Source of the DNA: Symploca sp. SIO2E9
GTDB taxonomy: Bacteria; Cyanobacteriota; Cyanobacteriia; Cyanobacteriales; Coleofasciculaceae
DNA length: 64,000 nucleotides
NCBI GenBank assembly: GCA_010692645.1
Contig: JAAHGS010000002.1
Location: 1-64,000, forward strand
Direction of reading: 5' to 3'
Position numbers and translations under genes: made by a program. A model generated the notes under the pieces. It saw nothing but the letters and a program-made list of their open reading frames with translations, had not been told where the DNA came from and did no database searches. Position 1 is the stretch's first letter. Every line of letters begins with the position of its first letter. Shown here in pieces: positions 41,632-53,660 of this stretch.

Positions 41632-44600
41632 CTAGGGAATTGTCAGGTCAACCTTGAAGGTTACATCGTTAAAGTCATTGTCACCGCCACCGAACAAATC
41701 TTCAACACCAAAAGTATTGTCCCCAAGCATAGCAAAGTGATCGACTTGATCAGGGTTGGCATCCTCGAAAGCAAAGTAGGCATTAGAACCTTCATCCTCT
41801 AAATTCTCTGGATTAGTTTTGAGAAAATCGCTGATGCTGCCATTGACAATGACGAATGGTGCTAAAATCTCCCCTCCTTGCAGCTGAGTGACTATATTGG
41901 CAGTGCCTTGGTTTTCCACAGAGAGTTCAACTTCTATACTCTGCCGGATAGCAATTTCTGCATAACCTTGAGCTTCAGGGTTAACTAGTTGACCAGTTAA
42001 TTCATCAAGGATTGTACCTTGCTCATTTTGAACCACATAAAAGCTAATCCTATTGTTAAACTCAGCCTCCCGGTTCACTGTAAAGCTAGCAGAAACCTCC
42101 CCCTCAAAAGAACGTAAATCTAGCAATTCTCCTTGACTGATTATTTGAAGTTCTGCCCCCGGTGTCGGGCTTGTGCCTACCGACTCAAGGTTTATTACAA
42201 CATCGTCGAAGGAAGCATCACCCCCATCTGGCTGCTCCTCCCAATTGAGGGTAAAACTAGTACTGGTAGAATTAGAAACCTGTAGATTGGTTGAAGTGGA
42301 GAAGATCACATTATCAGGCGTCTCTCCAGCAGCCACTTGGCTGAGTACTTGGTCTGTAGTACCTTGTGAGACTAAGTAAAATCCTAGGCGATCGCTAGAT
42401 GTAAACTCTAAGAGGCGAGAATTTTGTGCAAAACCATTGGGAGGGTTAGATAGGACTGAACTAATGATTTGCGCCCGACTTAGGGCAGCTTGCAAATAGC
42501 CAGGTTCGCCAGGGGCAATTCCGTCGATAGTGCCTTGGTCATCATCAACCAAAAATACCCCCATTTCACTGTTAAAACTAGGGCTACTATTGATATCAAC
42601 ACTAAATTTGAGTTTGACTGAGGAACTGATTTCCTCAAATGCAAAAATACCAGCAGTGTCTACATTTCGGAACTCAGCAATTAAGTTTTCTCCGATAGTA
42701 AAATTAAAACTCCTGCTGGTAATTAGTTCACCGTTAGCTGTGACGTCGAAACCGAAACTATCGCTACTGGCGTCGCTGTCGCCATCGGCATAAGTCAGCA
42801 AACCATTGTTAATGTCGGCTTGGGTGAAAGTAGAATTAATTTCTACAGCAACACCATTGAGAAAGAGAATACCTTCATCAGGTAAATCAGTCAGGGTGTA
42901 GATAATTTGTTCTGCAGAAGTATCTCCACTACTAACCACAAGAAATTGGTTACTGATTACTTCGGTTTCCCCTTCATCGAGATTGATAGCAATAGTTTGA
43001 ATTTGCTTGTTGGCGGTGATGGTACCTGCCCCTTCAATGGTGCCACCAGTTACCTCGAAGAACTCGACATTAATGTTCTCATTGACGGTGAGAGTTCCCC
43101 CCACCAAGCGAACAGAACCTGCTCCAGTGAAAGTTGTTCCTGTGTCCAGGATGTGAGTTCCCTCAGCAAACTCAACTGTAGCGTCTTCATCAAGGTCAAA
43201 AGAGCCACTAATTTCACTATCGCCCTCCAGTTTAAGCTTGTTTTTGACTTTGACTTTACTTTGACTTTTGAACTTACTCTTAATCGTGACTTCCTCATCA
43301 ATATTGAGTTCGCCGCTAACTAAGTCAACTGTACCCAAGCCCAGGAAATCACTACCAGCAGCAAAAGTATGTGTCAGACCAATTAACTCTAAGCTAGCCT
43401 CTTCATCAAGGTCAAAGGAACCACTAATTTCACTATCGCCCTCCAGCTTAAGCTTGTTTTTGACTTTGACTTTACTTTGACTTTTGAACTTACTCTTAAT
43501 ACTGACTTCCTCATCAATATTGAGTTCGCCGCTAACTAAGTCAACTGTACCCAAGCCCAGGAAATCACTACCAGCAGCAAAAGTATGTGTCAGACCAATT
43601 AACTCTAAGCTAGCCTCTTCATCAAGGTCAAAGGAACCACTAATTTCACTATCGCCCTCCAGCTTAAGCTTGTTTTTGACTTTGACTTTACTTTGACTTT
43701 TGAACTTACTCTTAATACTGACTTCCTCATCAATATTGAGTTCGCCGCTAACTAAGTCAACTGTACCCAAGCCCAGGAAATCACTACCAGCAGCAAAAGT
43801 ATGTGTCAGACCAATTAACTCTAAGCTAGCCTCTTCATCAAGGTCAAAAGAGCCACTAATTTCACTATCGCCCTCCAGTTTAAGCTTGTTTTTGACTTTG
43901 ACGTTGCTCTGACTTTTGAACTTACTCTTAATACTGACTTCCTCATCAATATTGAGTTCGCCGCTAACTAAGTCAACTGTACCCAAGCCCAGGAAATCAC
44001 TATCAGCAGCAAAAGTATGTGTCAGACCAATTAACTCTAAGCTAGCCTCTTCATCAAGGTCAAAAGAACCACTAATTTCACTATCGCCCTCCAGTTTAAG
44101 CTTGTTTTTGACTTTGACGTTGCTCTGACTTTTGAACTTACTCTTAATACTGACTTCCTCATCAATATTGAGTTCGCCGCTAACTAGGTCAACTGTACCC
44201 AAGCCCAGGAAATCACTACCAGCAGCAAAAGTATGTGTCAGACCAATTAACTCTAAACTAGCGTCTTCATCAAGGTCAAAAGAGCCACGGATTTCACTAT
44301 CACCAGTCAGATTTAACTTCTTGCCAGTTTTAATCTTGACTTCGCTCTTATTAATAAATTTGGTGTTAATAGTAAGGTCTTCATCGACATTAAAAATGCC
44401 GCTTTCCAGTTCAATTAAGCCTAATCCTTGAAAGCTGGTACCGCTGCCGAAAGCTTGGGTTTGACCACTAAACTTTACGCTGGAATTTTCTTCAATAGTA
44501 AAATTACCACTCCAGGTTGTGTTTCCCGTGCCAGTAAGTGTACCTGCGGTGAGATTCAAGGAAACCACTGTGATATCTACATCTGTGGTGACATTGACAT

Positions 44601-44712
44601 TGGTATTAATAATTACCTCATCTGATACACTGGGAACTACATTAATATCCCAATTTGCTGCATCGTTCCAGGATATACCATCACCAGATCCAGTCCAAGT
44701 AACAAGAGCCAT
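41632..44712 (-). CDS. Large repeat surface protein with cadherin-like and DUF4114 domains
   Basis: 1026 residues. It begins ALVTWTGSGDGISWNDAANW, a start often seen in secreted cyanobacterial adhesin-like proteins, with no classical signal peptide, so type I secretion is plausible. Beta-solenoid-like repeats cover residues 79-580: a diverged unit, five nearly identical 72-residue units (ASLELIGLTHTFAAGSDF... FDLDEE) at 151-510, and a diverged last one. Then a cadherin-like domain (LPDEGILFLNGVAVEINSTF, ADGDSDASSDSFGFDV), and two DUF4114 domains (NSEMGVFLVDDDQGTIDGIA; HFAMLGDNTFGVEDLFGGGD, NDFNDVTF). AGGAG precedes ATG 44712. Likely extracellular matrix or adhesion. Confidence 0.85.
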   Translation of the reverse strand: MALVTWTGSGDGISWNDAANWDINVVPSVSDEVIINTNVNVTTDVDITVVSLNLTAGTLTGTGNTTWSGNFTIEENSSVKFSGQTQAFGSGTSFQGLGLIELESGIFNVDEDLTINTKFINKSEVKIKTGKKLNLTGDSEIRGSFDLDEDASLELIGLTHTFAAGSDFLGLGTVDLVSGELNIDEEVSIKSKFKSQSNVKVKNKLKLEGDSEISGSFDLDEEASLELIGLTHTFAADSDFLGLGTVDLVSGELNIDEEVSIKSKFKSQSNVKVKNKLKLEGDSEISGSFDLDEEASLELIGLTHTFAAGSDFLGLGTVDLVSGELNIDEEVSIKSKFKSQSKVKVKNKLKLEGDSEISGSFDLDEEASLELIGLTHTFAAGSDFLGLGTVDLVSGELNIDEEVSIKSKFKSQSKVKVKNKLKLEGDSEISGSFDLDEEASLELIGLTHTFAAGSDFLGLGTVDLVSGELNIDEEVTIKSKFKSQSKVKVKNKLKLEGDSEISGSFDLDEDATVEFAEGTHILDTGTTFTGAGSVRLVGGTLTVNENINVEFFEVTGGTIEGAGTITANKQIQTIAINLDEGETEVISNQFLVVSSGDTSAEQIIYTLTDLPDEGILFLNGVAVEINSTFTQADINNGLLTYADGDSDASSDSFGFDVTANGELITSRSFNFTIGENLIAEFRNVDTAGIFAFEEISSSVKLKFSVDINSSPSFNSEMGVFLVDDDQGTIDGIAPGEPGYLQAALSRAQIISSVLSNPPNGFAQNSRLLEFTSSDRLGFYLVSQGTTDQVLSQVAAGETPDNVIFSTSTNLQVSNSTSTSFTLNWEEQPDGGDASFDDVVINLESVGTSPTPGAELQIISQGELLDLRSFEGEVSASFTVNREAEFNNRISFYVVQNEQGTILDELTGQLVNPEAQGYAEIAIRQSIEVELSVENQGTANIVTQLQGGEILAPFVIVNGSISDFLKTNPENLEDEGSNAYFAFEDANPDQVDHFAMLGDNTFGVEDLFGGGDNDFNDVTFKVDLTIP
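43183..44262. repeat. Five tandem 216-bp coding repeats
   Basis: Each unit is 216 bp (72 codons). Units differ at only a few positions, for example Asn/Lys in KSQSN/KVKVK and Gly/Asp in FAAGSD/FAADSD. Such DNA identity implies recent expansion or gene conversion. Confidence 0.95.
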
Positions 44713-48238: not shown

Positions 48239-48919
48239 ATGGCGCGAGGGGACCAAATCTACGTCATTCGACCCTATCTTAAACTGCAGGCTGTCTATCA
48301 GCATCACGGTATTGACTGTGGAGACGGTAATGTGATCCATTACCGTAAGCTTAAGGATCATGAGATGGTTTCGAGCACCTCTTTGGATACTTTTGCTCAA
48401 GGCAGAAAAGTCTATCGGAGAAAGTATAAGGTTTGTTATATCCCAGATGTAGTGGTTCAGCGCGCCCAAAGCCGATTAGGGGAGAGAAAATACAACTTGC
48501 TATTCAATAACTGCGAACACTTTGCTACTTGGTGTAAAACTGGCGTCAGCGATAGTCGGCAAATCAGAGATTTTCTGCCGTTGATTAGTAAGATCAAAAC
48601 AGAGAATTTATCCGAACCCTTAAAACAAGCAGTTAAGGGAGCAAATCGGAATGATGCAACCAAGTTATTAAACAAAGCCTTAGCTGATCTCAAGGTAGTG
48701 TGGGATAATACTCAACCCCAATATAAACAGGCAATTGAGGAGATTAATACCTGGGATCAAGTAGCAATTCGAGCTCTTAAAAATAACCGCGAGGATCTAG
48801 CACGTGCGGCACTCGAGCGAAAGTTAAACCATAAGAAACGTGCCCAGGAACTTAAAGCGAGGCTGGAGCATCTAGCGTCGATGACAGAAACACTCCTCCT
48901 CAACAGTGATCAATATTAA
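48239..48919 (+). CDS. LRAT-type papain-fold protein fused to a PspA-like helical segment
   Basis: 226 residues. The N-terminal 105 residues are a LRAT/NlpC-P60-like domain: VYQHHGIDCGDGNVIHY carries the catalytic histidine and NLLFNNCEHFATWCKTG the NCEHF cysteine motif. Such enzymes are acyltransferases or thioester hydrolases. After a linker, residues about 165-220 (INTWDQVAIRALKNNREDLA, then RAALERKLNHKKRAQELK) closely follow the PspA/IM30 helical hairpin: the W..A..AL...xEDLARAAL..K spacing is the same as in E. coli PspA as I remember it. I propose the enzyme is carried to membrane by a PspA/Vipp1-like arm. GAGG precedes ATG 48239. Confidence 0.85.
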   Translation: MARGDQIYVIRPYLKLQAVYQHHGIDCGDGNVIHYRKLKDHEMVSSTSLDTFAQGRKVYRRKYKVCYIPDVVVQRAQSRLGERKYNLLFNNCEHFATWCKTGVSDSRQIRDFLPLISKIKTENLSEPLKQAVKGANRNDATKLLNKALADLKVVWDNTQPQYKQAIEEINTWDQVAIRALKNNREDLARAALERKLNHKKRAQELKARLEHLASMTETLLLNSDQY

Positions 48920-51893: not shown

Positions 51894-53498
51894 TCAAACT
51901 TCCCCTGTTGCTAGCATCTGGATTAGACGAGGCACCCCCGGATCAAACCCGGCAAAATCCCAAGAAAGAGGGTCTTGAGGGTCTACCAGCGTAATACAGT
52001 AAGGGGTTAGAGTCACGTACACTGCTTTGAGCTTGGGATTAACCTTCTGGCGGTACTCGGCTAGCGCCTCGCTAGGATGACGTCTTCCTGCCCAGCTTTC
52101 GCTGTCTGTCCAAAAACAAACTACATCTGCCTTAAATCGATGGCGAATCATCCAGTCGTAAGCAATAGAGGCATCGGTTCCACCGAAGTTTTGGTTGCTA
52201 GCTTTACTGATAGCAGAACTAAAGCTATCTTTGCCAGTGATGCCTAAGTTACGAAATTGAGTGGAAAAGCCGCCAATCATATAGTTTTTCTCAGCTTTAG
52301 CTGTCACCAGTGCCATGGTGGTGGCAATTTCACAGCAACTCAAGCCCACTGAATCTACGACTCCATAAGACATTGAGCCAGAGATATCGACAGCGTGCAG
52401 GAATACTTTACCTGTGGGTTCAACTACTTCAAAGGAAAGTTCAACCGCCTTTTCCAGAATCTCCACAATCGGGGCAACTGGTTGCCAGGTTTTTTGACTA
52501 CGCCCCAAACGTCCTCCTGATTGGTAGGTTTTGAGGGCTTTGAGGACATCAATGGGGTGAATCCGTCCTTGGCGCAAGCACTTTTTGCTATTAAGGATGG
52601 CTTGGACACGCTTTAGATTTTCTGGTGCGTCGGCACGCAATACTCCCAACTGTGTCAGCGAACCCAAATTGCGCAGCATCGCGCCAATAGGCATTTCGTT
52701 GAATAACAATTGCCAAGCTTGCTTATTCATTTTACCCACTGGTGCAGCCATTTCGTGGGTAAGATGACCTTTAGCGATCGCTTGATTAGTTTGCTCTGGA
52801 TTTCGCTTGAGCCACTCGTACCACCAAATCTGAGTTAGTGCCGGGGTTGGGATTTCTGTCGGCAGTTCTTGCCAACCCTTTACAACCCACTCAAACAGCT
52901 GTTGGTGTTCGGCGCTGGGAGGCTTGACATGGAACAGGCGTAGGGCATCTCGGTGGGAAAAGCCATGGCGCTGCTGGTATTTGAGTAACTGGTAAGCTAA
53001 GCCTCGGGCATCTTCCCGTGAGAGCCAGTTTTTCCCTGCTTCCCGAACCACCTTGCCAAATCCTCGCAGGGCTTTAGTATAGTTGAGCCATTCGTAGAAG
53101 TGGCTGCCAGTGCGAACTACTTGCCCAAAGATTTCCTCGAATGCGGCTTTGGCTGCTGGTTTTTCCCCCATTGATAGCAGTACTAGGGCGAAAATGGGGG
53201 CGCTGTTGTTAATTGCTCTGCCATCACTAGCATAGAGGATTTCATGAGCTACTCGCTTGGGGTCTTTTGCGATCGCTTTACGCAAAACTTCGGCAAAATC
53301 CTTGGTTAATTCTCGCTTACCTGCATAGTAGGTACTTTGGGCTGTACCAACTAGTAAGCAGCGCCGCAGTAGTTTCCAGGTTCCGGCGTTGAACATGAAG
53401 CCGGCAGAACGACCTTGAATCATTTCTTGTTCCCGCCCAGGGATGGGCTGACTTTGCGCAGTGCCAGTCTTATCTGAAGTGAAGAATTTGTAATTCAT
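51894..53498 (-). CDS. rsr: TROVE-domain (Ro60-like) RNA-binding protein
   Basis: 534 residues, the length of Ro60. A ring of helical HEAT-like TROVE repeats covers residues about 30-365 (GRSAGFMFNAGTWKLLRRCL, KRVAHEILYASDGRAINNSA). A vWA domain follows with the metal site DISGSM near 373 and GGTDASIAYDWM. In bacteria Ro60 (Rsr) binds Y RNAs and misfolded RNA and tethers PNPase, aiding RNA turnover under stress. A tRNA-like RNA gene lies 39 bases upstream on the same strand, which fits. No rtcB/rtcA is in the window. Ribosome site before ATG 53498 is weak. Confidence 0.92.
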   Translation of the reverse strand: MNYKFFTSDKTGTAQSQPIPGREQEMIQGRSAGFMFNAGTWKLLRRCLLVGTAQSTYYAGKRELTKDFAEVLRKAIAKDPKRVAHEILYASDGRAINNSAPIFALVLLSMGEKPAAKAAFEEIFGQVVRTGSHFYEWLNYTKALRGFGKVVREAGKNWLSREDARGLAYQLLKYQQRHGFSHRDALRLFHVKPPSAEHQQLFEWVVKGWQELPTEIPTPALTQIWWYEWLKRNPEQTNQAIAKGHLTHEMAAPVGKMNKQAWQLLFNEMPIGAMLRNLGSLTQLGVLRADAPENLKRVQAILNSKKCLRQGRIHPIDVLKALKTYQSGGRLGRSQKTWQPVAPIVEILEKAVELSFEVVEPTGKVFLHAVDISGSMSYGVVDSVGLSCCEIATTMALVTAKAEKNYMIGGFSTQFRNLGITGKDSFSSAISKASNQNFGGTDASIAYDWMIRHRFKADVVCFWTDSESWAGRRHPSEALAEYRQKVNPKLKAVYVTLTPYCITLVDPQDPLSWDFAGFDPGVPRLIQMLATGEV

Positions 53499-53536: not shown

Positions 53537-53660
53537 GTGGCGGAGCGGGATTCGAACCCGCGATTACCCGTTGTATAGACGATAACCCTCGATTCTTCGG
53601 CCCAAAGGGCAAGGGGTGAATAAGGATGTTTGGTGCCTTAACCACTTGGCTACCCGCCAC
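53537..53660 (-). ncRNA. tRNA-like RNA, probable Y RNA (YrlA-type)
   Basis: On the minus strand: acceptor-like stem GTGGCGGG pairs with TCCGCCAC; TA; D arm GCC-AAGTGGTTAA-GGC; T arm GCGGG-TTCGAAT-CCCGC joined directly to the acceptor strand. Between D and T arms are about 70 nt instead of the normal anticodon region, with a GCCC-TTT-GGGC hairpin and a stem TTATCGT/ACGGGTAA. Length 122-124 nt, no canonical anticodon arm. It lies just upstream of the Ro60 gene. Bacterial YrlA RNAs are known to mimic tRNA and to be encoded next to Ro60. A T-run (TTTTTT on plus 53665) is on the 5' side, so transcription runs toward rsr. Confidence 0.7.

What the first reader, a model, noticed from the sequence alone, without database searches (positions are those of the whole stretch)
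48239..48919. LRAT-type enzyme fused to a PspA/Vipp1-like helical arm
H and NCEHF motifs of the LRAT papain-like fold are intact, and the C-terminal W..A..AL...REDLARAALERK stretch has the spacing of the PspA helical hairpin. An acyltransferase or hydrolase carried by an ESCRT-III-like membrane-binding arm would link lipid or thioester chemistry to membrane stress. I do not recall this pairing described.
Basis: partly seen in the sequence, partly recalled or inferred. Interest (0 to 1): 0.72.

Follow-up and report, generated by a model that had tools for sequence, protein, structure and literature searches.

The report
Lipid enzyme with membrane-repair hairpin
Many cyanobacteria carry a small predicted lipid-modifying enzyme joined to a helical arm borrowed from the membrane-repair proteins Vipp1/PspA; the pairing is real and widely conserved, but it was already noted in one sentence of a 2024 survey and nobody seems to have studied it.

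Summary
The 226-residue ORF at 48239-48919 is an LRAT-type permuted NlpC/P60 domain (residues 2-104, Pfam E=6e-26) followed by a stretch homologous to Vipp1/PspA residues 22-121 (Pfam PspA_IM30 E=1e-8 for the C-terminal half; profile-profile E=2e-15, 98.5%). AlphaFold gives a PLAAT3-like domain plus an antiparallel helical hairpin. The catalytic equivalents H22, H34 and C92 are invariant in 67 non-redundant homologues, and the fusion is full length in 33 of 57 related genomes. It is not a PspA: helices alpha0, alpha4 and alpha5 are missing. What remains is the alpha1-alpha3 hairpin, which in Vipp1/IM30 is reported to bind anionic membranes alone. The tip that docks helix alpha5 in Vipp1 is the best preserved part. 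Cyanobacteria lack that lipid (established knowledge), so PG or galactolipids are likelier. New here: distribution, truncated anatomy, hydrophobic-linker variants, and adjacency to superoxide dismutases of two unrelated families in nine loci. Best reading: a hairpin-tethered thiol phospholipase/acyltransferase for remodelling stressed membranes. Activity, substrate and localisation are inferred.

The parts
48239..48919 (+). complete gene, 226 aa, LRAT domain plus Vipp1/PspA hairpin
48239..48550 (+). LRAT-type permuted papain-like (NlpC/P60) domain, residues 1-104
   Evidence: Pfam PF04970 E=5.9e-26; model aligns to human PLAAT3 7zom with Z 13.5, rmsd 1.9 over 96 residues
48302..48304 (+). H22, equivalent of the catalytic His of PLAAT3
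   Evidence: profile alignment; 67/67 conserved
48338..48340 (+). H34, equivalent of the second (polar/His) residue of PLAAT3
   Evidence: 67/67 conserved
48512..48514 (+). C92, catalytic Cys of NCEHF
   Evidence: 67/67 conserved
48533..48535 (+). C99, second Cys seven residues after C92, as reported for LRAT (PMC3142127)
   Evidence: 66/67 conserved; LRAT second Cys
48551..48646 (+). linker, residues 105-136: LRAT-type S.Q motif, then a low-confidence stretch; in variant proteins a hydrophobic segment sits here
   Evidence: pLDDT 52-64; variants
48599..48904 (+). region homologous to Vipp1/PspA residues 22-121 (alpha1 and first part of alpha2/3), residues 121-222
48647..48781 (+). helix 137-181 (alpha1 equivalent)
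   Evidence: AlphaFold model
48791..48907 (+). helix 185-223 (alpha2/3 equivalent, truncated)
   Evidence: AlphaFold model
48740..48835 (+). hairpin tip, residues 168-199 (W172, A176, A179, L187, A188, A191 equal invariant Vipp1/PspA tip residues); L187 = Vipp1 L86, which crosslinks to alpha5
   Evidence: cross-family identity 0.41 against 0.19 elsewhere, permutation p=0.0008; L86 crosslink in PMC8281802

Best explanation
A soluble, cytoplasm-facing LRAT/PLAAT-type thiol enzyme held at membranes by an ESCRT-III (Vipp1/PspA) alpha1-alpha3 hairpin. Inferred chemistry: C92, activated by H22, takes an acyl chain from a membrane glycerolipid as a thioester and passes it to water (phospholipase A-like) or to an acceptor (acyltransferase). 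In cyanobacteria the donor would be PG or a galactolipid, since phosphatidylcholine is absent. The hairpin takes the place of the C-terminal transmembrane anchor of animal PLAATs and brings the enzyme to anionic or stressed membrane, directly and perhaps also by offering its conserved tip to helix alpha5 of the cell's own Vipp1/PspA. The role is remodelling or removal of damaged acyl chains under membrane stress, probably oxidative. Shown: both domains, intact catalytic residues, conserved architecture, absence of alpha0/alpha4/alpha5, tip preservation, superoxide-dismutase adjacency in some lineages. Inferred: activity, substrate, membrane binding, partner and role.
For: Domains. Model: PLAAT3 Z 13.5, Vipp1 Z 10.4. 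Invariant H22/H34/C92 and near-invariant C99. Full-length proteins in 33/57 relatives and 37/292 sampled cyanobacteria; LRAT-borne hairpins form one group apart from Vipp1/PspA. Isolated IM30 alpha1-3 binds PG liposomes, KD about 3 uM (PMC12636044); net hairpin charge is similar to Vipp1/PspA (mean +1.4 against +1.7). Related proteins with a hydrophobic linker or tail at the same position support a membrane site. PLAAT3 is recruited to damaged organelle membranes, and the TM of PLAATs is needed for membrane effects (PMC9338259). Fe/Mn SOD lies directly upstream in seven loci, and unrelated Cu/Zn SODs adjoin the gene in two more, L052 upstream and L055 downstream.
Against: No biochemical or localisation data. 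SOD adjacency is limited to one part of the tree (nine of 72 proteins, six changes) and is absent in the window's genome. Helical hairpins give middling structural scores to many unrelated coiled coils. Domain orientation is uncertain (pTM 0.50). The net charge is only weakly positive. Some 3-Mb genomes carry decayed copies, so the gene is dispensable there.
Confidence: 0.5

Rival explanations
1. Co-assembly reading: the hairpin does not bind lipid on its own but docks into Vipp1/PspA polymers, accepting their alpha5 on its conserved tip, so the enzyme is a cargo or cap of the Vipp1/PspA coat.
For: The tip (168-199) is the part most strongly shared with Vipp1/PspA (0.41 against 0.19, p=0.0008). 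Vipp1 L86, at the alpha5 contact, corresponds to L187. The protein has no alpha5 of its own, and full Vipp1 and PspA genes are present in the same genome.
Against: Tip conservation could also serve the hairpin turn itself; within the LRAT family the tip is not significantly more conserved than the shaft (p=0.11). No gene linkage to vipp1/pspA was seen.
Confidence: 0.25
2. The LRAT domain is an acyltransferase to a non-phospholipid acceptor (lipoprotein N-terminus as for LnsA, or an isoprenoid or quinol alcohol), and the hairpin is only an oligomerisation device.
For: S. aureus LnsA, a permuted NlpC/P60 enzyme, is needed for lipoprotein N-acylation (PMC7387801); LRAT itself esterifies retinol (PMC3142127). 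The second cysteine C99 matches one reported as important for LRAT acyltransferase activity.
Against: No LnsB-like partner was looked for, and no conserved partner gene other than a GntR regulator and SODs was found. LnsA works with an integral membrane partner.
Confidence: 0.2
3. The protein is a catalytically dead scaffold.
For: Only that no activity is known.
Against: H22, H34, Y85 and C92 are invariant in 67 non-redundant homologues.
Confidence: 0.04

Closest known systems
PspA_IM30-NlpC/P60 fusion, example AFZ52345.1 (Ravi et al. 2024, mSystems, PMC11237479)
   Same: Same pair of superfamilies (LRAT is a family of NlpC/P60, PMC3142127); a lipid-modifying, membrane-altering role was already predicted there.
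   Different: Described in one sentence; its LRAT nature, truncated hairpin, distribution and gene context are not given in the main text. It predicts phosphatidylcholine as target, a lipid cyanobacteria do not make. I could not retrieve AFZ52345.1 to confirm orthology.
Animal PLAAT (HRASLS) phospholipase A/acyltransferases and LRAT
   Same: Fold (Z 13.5), catalytic Cys/His, NCEHF and S.Q motifs, a C-terminal membrane-targeting element.
   Different: PLAATs end in a transmembrane helix; here an ESCRT-III hairpin takes its place. Substrate unknown.
Vipp1/IM30 and PspA (bacterial ESCRT-III)
   Same: Homologous alpha1-alpha2/3 hairpin with the same tip residues.
   Different: No alpha0, alpha4, alpha5 or alpha6; carries an enzyme instead.
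LnsA of Staphylococcus aureus
   Same: A bacterial permuted NlpC/P60 protein required for acyl transfer.
   Different: No hairpin; works with LnsB on lipoproteins.

Membership tests
LRAT-like NlpC/P60 (PF04970) | Significant match to the family profile | tested here: met
   E=5.9e-26, 91.6 bits against 24.3
LRAT-like NlpC/P60 (PF04970) | Permuted order His..His..Cys with NCEHF | tested here: met
   H22, H34, C92 aligned to PLAAT3 and invariant
LRAT-like NlpC/P60 (PF04970) | PLAAT-like fold | tested here: met
   AlphaFold model, Z 13.5 to 7zom, well above the unrelated rows
LRAT-like NlpC/P60 (PF04970) | Thiol acyltransferase or phospholipase activity | not testable with these tools
   needs an assay
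PspA/IM30/Vipp1 (bacterial ESCRT-III) as a full member | alpha1-alpha2/3 hairpin homologous by sequence | tested here: met
   hhalign 98.5%, E=2e-15; two antiparallel helices
PspA/IM30/Vipp1 (bacterial ESCRT-III) as a full member | N-terminal amphipathic helix alpha0 | tested here: not met
   N-terminus is the LRAT domain; homology starts at Vipp1 residue 22
PspA/IM30/Vipp1 (bacterial ESCRT-III) as a full member | alpha4 and alpha5, needed for polymerisation | tested here: not met
   protein ends four residues after the Vipp1 121 equivalent
PspA/IM30/Vipp1 (bacterial ESCRT-III) as a full member | PspA equivalog cut-off (TIGR02977) | tested here: not met
   25 bits against 242.95
PspA_IM30-NlpC/P60 fusion of Ravi et al. 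2024 | Both domains in one polypeptide | tested here: met
PspA_IM30-NlpC/P60 fusion of Ravi et al. 2024 | Orthology to AFZ52345.1 | not testable with these tools
   record not held in the collections

The most novel reading that the evidence does not exclude
A lipid-modifying enzyme is docked into bacterial ESCRT-III polymers: the LRAT hairpin keeps the alpha5-docking tip without owning an alpha5, so Vipp1/PspA coats on oxidatively damaged thylakoid or plasma membranes would recruit a thiol phospholipase/acyltransferase and couple membrane remodelling to acyl-chain repair.
Probability: 0.2. Interest if true: 0.82.

Novelty: new member of a known kind. Interest (0 to 1): 0.5.

Why it matters
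Vipp1/PspA are known as membrane coats without lipid chemistry of their own. A conserved natural fusion of their hairpin with a lipid enzyme is a ready handle on which lipid reactions accompany bacterial ESCRT-III action and thylakoid maintenance. Its presence in culturable genera (Planktothrix, Microcystis, Trichodesmium, Moorena, Spirulina) and its occasional pairing with superoxide dismutases suggest concrete stress conditions for a test.

Tried and rejected
Chance helical resemblance: rejected by profile-profile and tree results, although fold comparison alone (Z about 10 for many coiled coils) would not have sufficed. Assembly or frame artefact: rejected, the same fusion lies in dozens of independent genomes with no internal stops. 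Full PspA member: rejected, alpha0/alpha4/alpha5 missing. Within-family tip conservation as an argument: not significant (p=0.11). General operon conservation: none beyond GntR and SOD; the window's own neighbours (VTT protein, OppC-type permease) are shared only with one or two other loci. Phosphatidylcholine as substrate: rejected on established cyanobacterial lipid composition (PG, MGDG, DGDG, SQDG; from general knowledge). Paper searches for LRAT with cyanobacteria, Vipp1 or PspA found no experimental study. The first script for the hairpin tree failed on alignment parsing and was redone. The 2003 NlpC/P60 survey cited by Ravi et al. was not held.

Full report
Observation. The ORF 48239-48919 (+) encodes 226 residues. 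Residues 2-104 match LRAT (PF04970, E=5.9e-26) and residues 139-219 match PspA_IM30 (PF04012; 8.2e-8 for the whole protein, slightly under the curated cut-off; 1.4e-8 and above the cut-off for the C-terminal part alone). Against solved structures the best sequence matches are Nostoc Vipp1 for residues 121-222 (7e-6, aligned to Vipp1 22-121) and human PLAAT enzymes for the N-terminal half. A profile of 56 homologues strengthens both: 4e-9 each. Profile-profile comparison of the hairpin with 22 cyanobacterial Vipp1/PspA gives 98.5% and 2e-15.

Anatomy. The AlphaFold model (mean pLDDT 80.6, pTM 0.50) shows a compact alpha/beta domain, a low-confidence linker (about 101-140) and two long antiparallel helices, 137-181 and 185-223. 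The N-terminal domain superposes on PLAAT3 with Z 13.5; the hairpin superposes on Vipp1 (10.4), Snf7 (10.6) and E. coli PspA (10.0), but unrelated coiled coils score about the same, so for the hairpin the sequence evidence carries the case. H22, H34 and C92 align with the PLAAT active-site residues. All three, and Y85, are invariant in 67 non-redundant homologues, and C99, seven residues after C92 like the second cysteine of LRAT (PMC3142127), is present in 66. Compared with Vipp1 the protein lacks alpha0, alpha4 and alpha5.

Distribution and origin. Full-length fusions occur in 33 of 57 related genomes and 37 of 292 genomes sampled across the phylum. A scan of one genome for each of 84,980 species found 429 related stretches, and the 80 best are cyanobacterial, apart from two MAGs labelled Chloroflexaceae and Gracilibacteria that are likely binning errors (my inference). 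In a tree of hairpins the LRAT-borne ones group together (support 0.77) and Vipp1/PspA form a separate clade (0.99), consistent with a single old fusion. Cyanobacterial LRAT proteins come in other arrangements: LRAT, hydrophobic Gly/Ala-rich linker and hairpin (L120, L121, L160); LRAT with a hydrophobic tail and no hairpin (for example L122, L123, L126, L128); and, in a family of small genomes, LRAT with a helical tail that lacks the tip motif (L115-L119). The element after the LRAT domain is thus repeatedly membrane-related, at the point where PLAATs carry a transmembrane helix (PMC9338259).

How it may work. Isolated IM30 alpha1-3 binds PG liposomes with an apparent KD near 3 uM (PMC12636044), so the part retained here overlaps the part reported sufficient for binding. 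Vipp1 without alpha5/6 cannot form rings or filaments (PMC8281802), so canonical self-assembly is unlikely. The hairpin tip, residues 168-199, shares 41% cross-family identity with Vipp1/PspA against 19% elsewhere (permutation p=0.0008). In Vipp1 this tip receives alpha5 of other subunits, and L86, which crosslinks to alpha5, corresponds to L187 here. A protein with the socket but not the plug suggests docking to the cell's own Vipp1/PspA, of which the genome has one tandem pair. This is a hypothesis: the tip could be conserved for the turn alone, and within the LRAT family it is not significantly more conserved than the shaft (p=0.11).

Gene context. The window gene stands alone between oppositely oriented genes and its neighbourhood is shared only with its closest relatives. 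Elsewhere a pattern exists. A GntR-type regulator lies upstream in about 14 genomes' loci, often 10-50 bases away, and a signal-bearing Fe/Mn superoxide dismutase is directly upstream in seven loci (L012, L013, L014, L021, L028, L033, L035). In L052 the slot between regulator and LRAT gene holds a Cu/Zn SOD, an unrelated family, and in L055 a Cu/Zn SOD-like gene lies just downstream. On the protein tree the nine SOD carriers need six changes. The window's genome has the GntR and SOD genes at other places, so the link is lineage-limited; it points to oxidative stress without proving it.

Prior art. Ravi et al. [quoted passage not shown] LRAT is one of the four NlpC/P60 families (PMC3142127). 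The accession prefix looks cyanobacterial to me, from memory and not verified. Since cyanobacteria do not make phosphatidylcholine (general knowledge), the published substrate guess should be replaced by PG or galactolipids. No experimental study was found in the open-licence library; subscription journals were not covered.

Verdict. A real, conserved, catalytically intact LRAT enzyme on a truncated bacterial ESCRT-III hairpin: known as an architecture, unstudied as a protein. A hairpin-tethered thiol phospholipase/acyltransferase for stressed membranes is the best-supported reading at about 0.5.

Noticed in passing
window 51894-53498 (-) and 53537-53659 (-): A Ro60-like gene (TROVE plus Ro60 vWA) has directly upstream, on the same strand, an RNA that Rfam calls tRNA (40.9 bits) but that ARAGORN does not; it has D- and T-arms and a 63-nt stretch where the anticodon arm should be. 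This looks like a bacterial Y RNA (YrlA type) with its Ro protein in a cyanobacterium.
   Followed up: partly
L155, L156, L157: A third cyanobacterial arrangement: Vipp1-like alpha0, then about 110 residues of Gly/Ala-rich hydrophobic sequence, then the same hairpin without alpha4/alpha5 (hairpin profile E 1e-18 to 1e-21). It may be a membrane-embedded Vipp1 relative.
   Followed up: partly
L012, L013, L014, L021, L028, L033, L035, L052, L055: LRAT-hairpin genes adjacent to superoxide dismutases of two unrelated families, in several cases with a GntR regulator upstream.
   Followed up: yes
G221:C1:2172740-2173399, G303:C1:2474984-2475533, G186:C1:2340735-2340923: Decayed LRAT-hairpin genes with stops in about 3-Mb genomes of one genus, whose larger relative G182 keeps an intact gene.
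   Followed up: no
L115-L119: Small-genome cyanobacteria (family f41) carry an LRAT protein with a helical tail lacking the W..A..AL..REDLAR tip; in several genomes it lies at about 60 kb in contig 1, suggesting a conserved position.
   Followed up: no
window 41632-44712 (-): A 1026-residue protein (Cadherin_3, DUF4114) holds about five near-identical 72-residue repeats spaced 216 bases apart.
   Followed up: no
PDB 8iuf chain E7: A Euglena complex I subunit (NDUEG7) carries the same LRAT-like fold (Z 13.5 to the model).
   Followed up: no
L021, L028: LRAT-hairpin genes in MAGs labelled Chloroflexaceae and Candidatus Gracilibacteria; probably misbinned cyanobacterial contigs.
   Followed up: no
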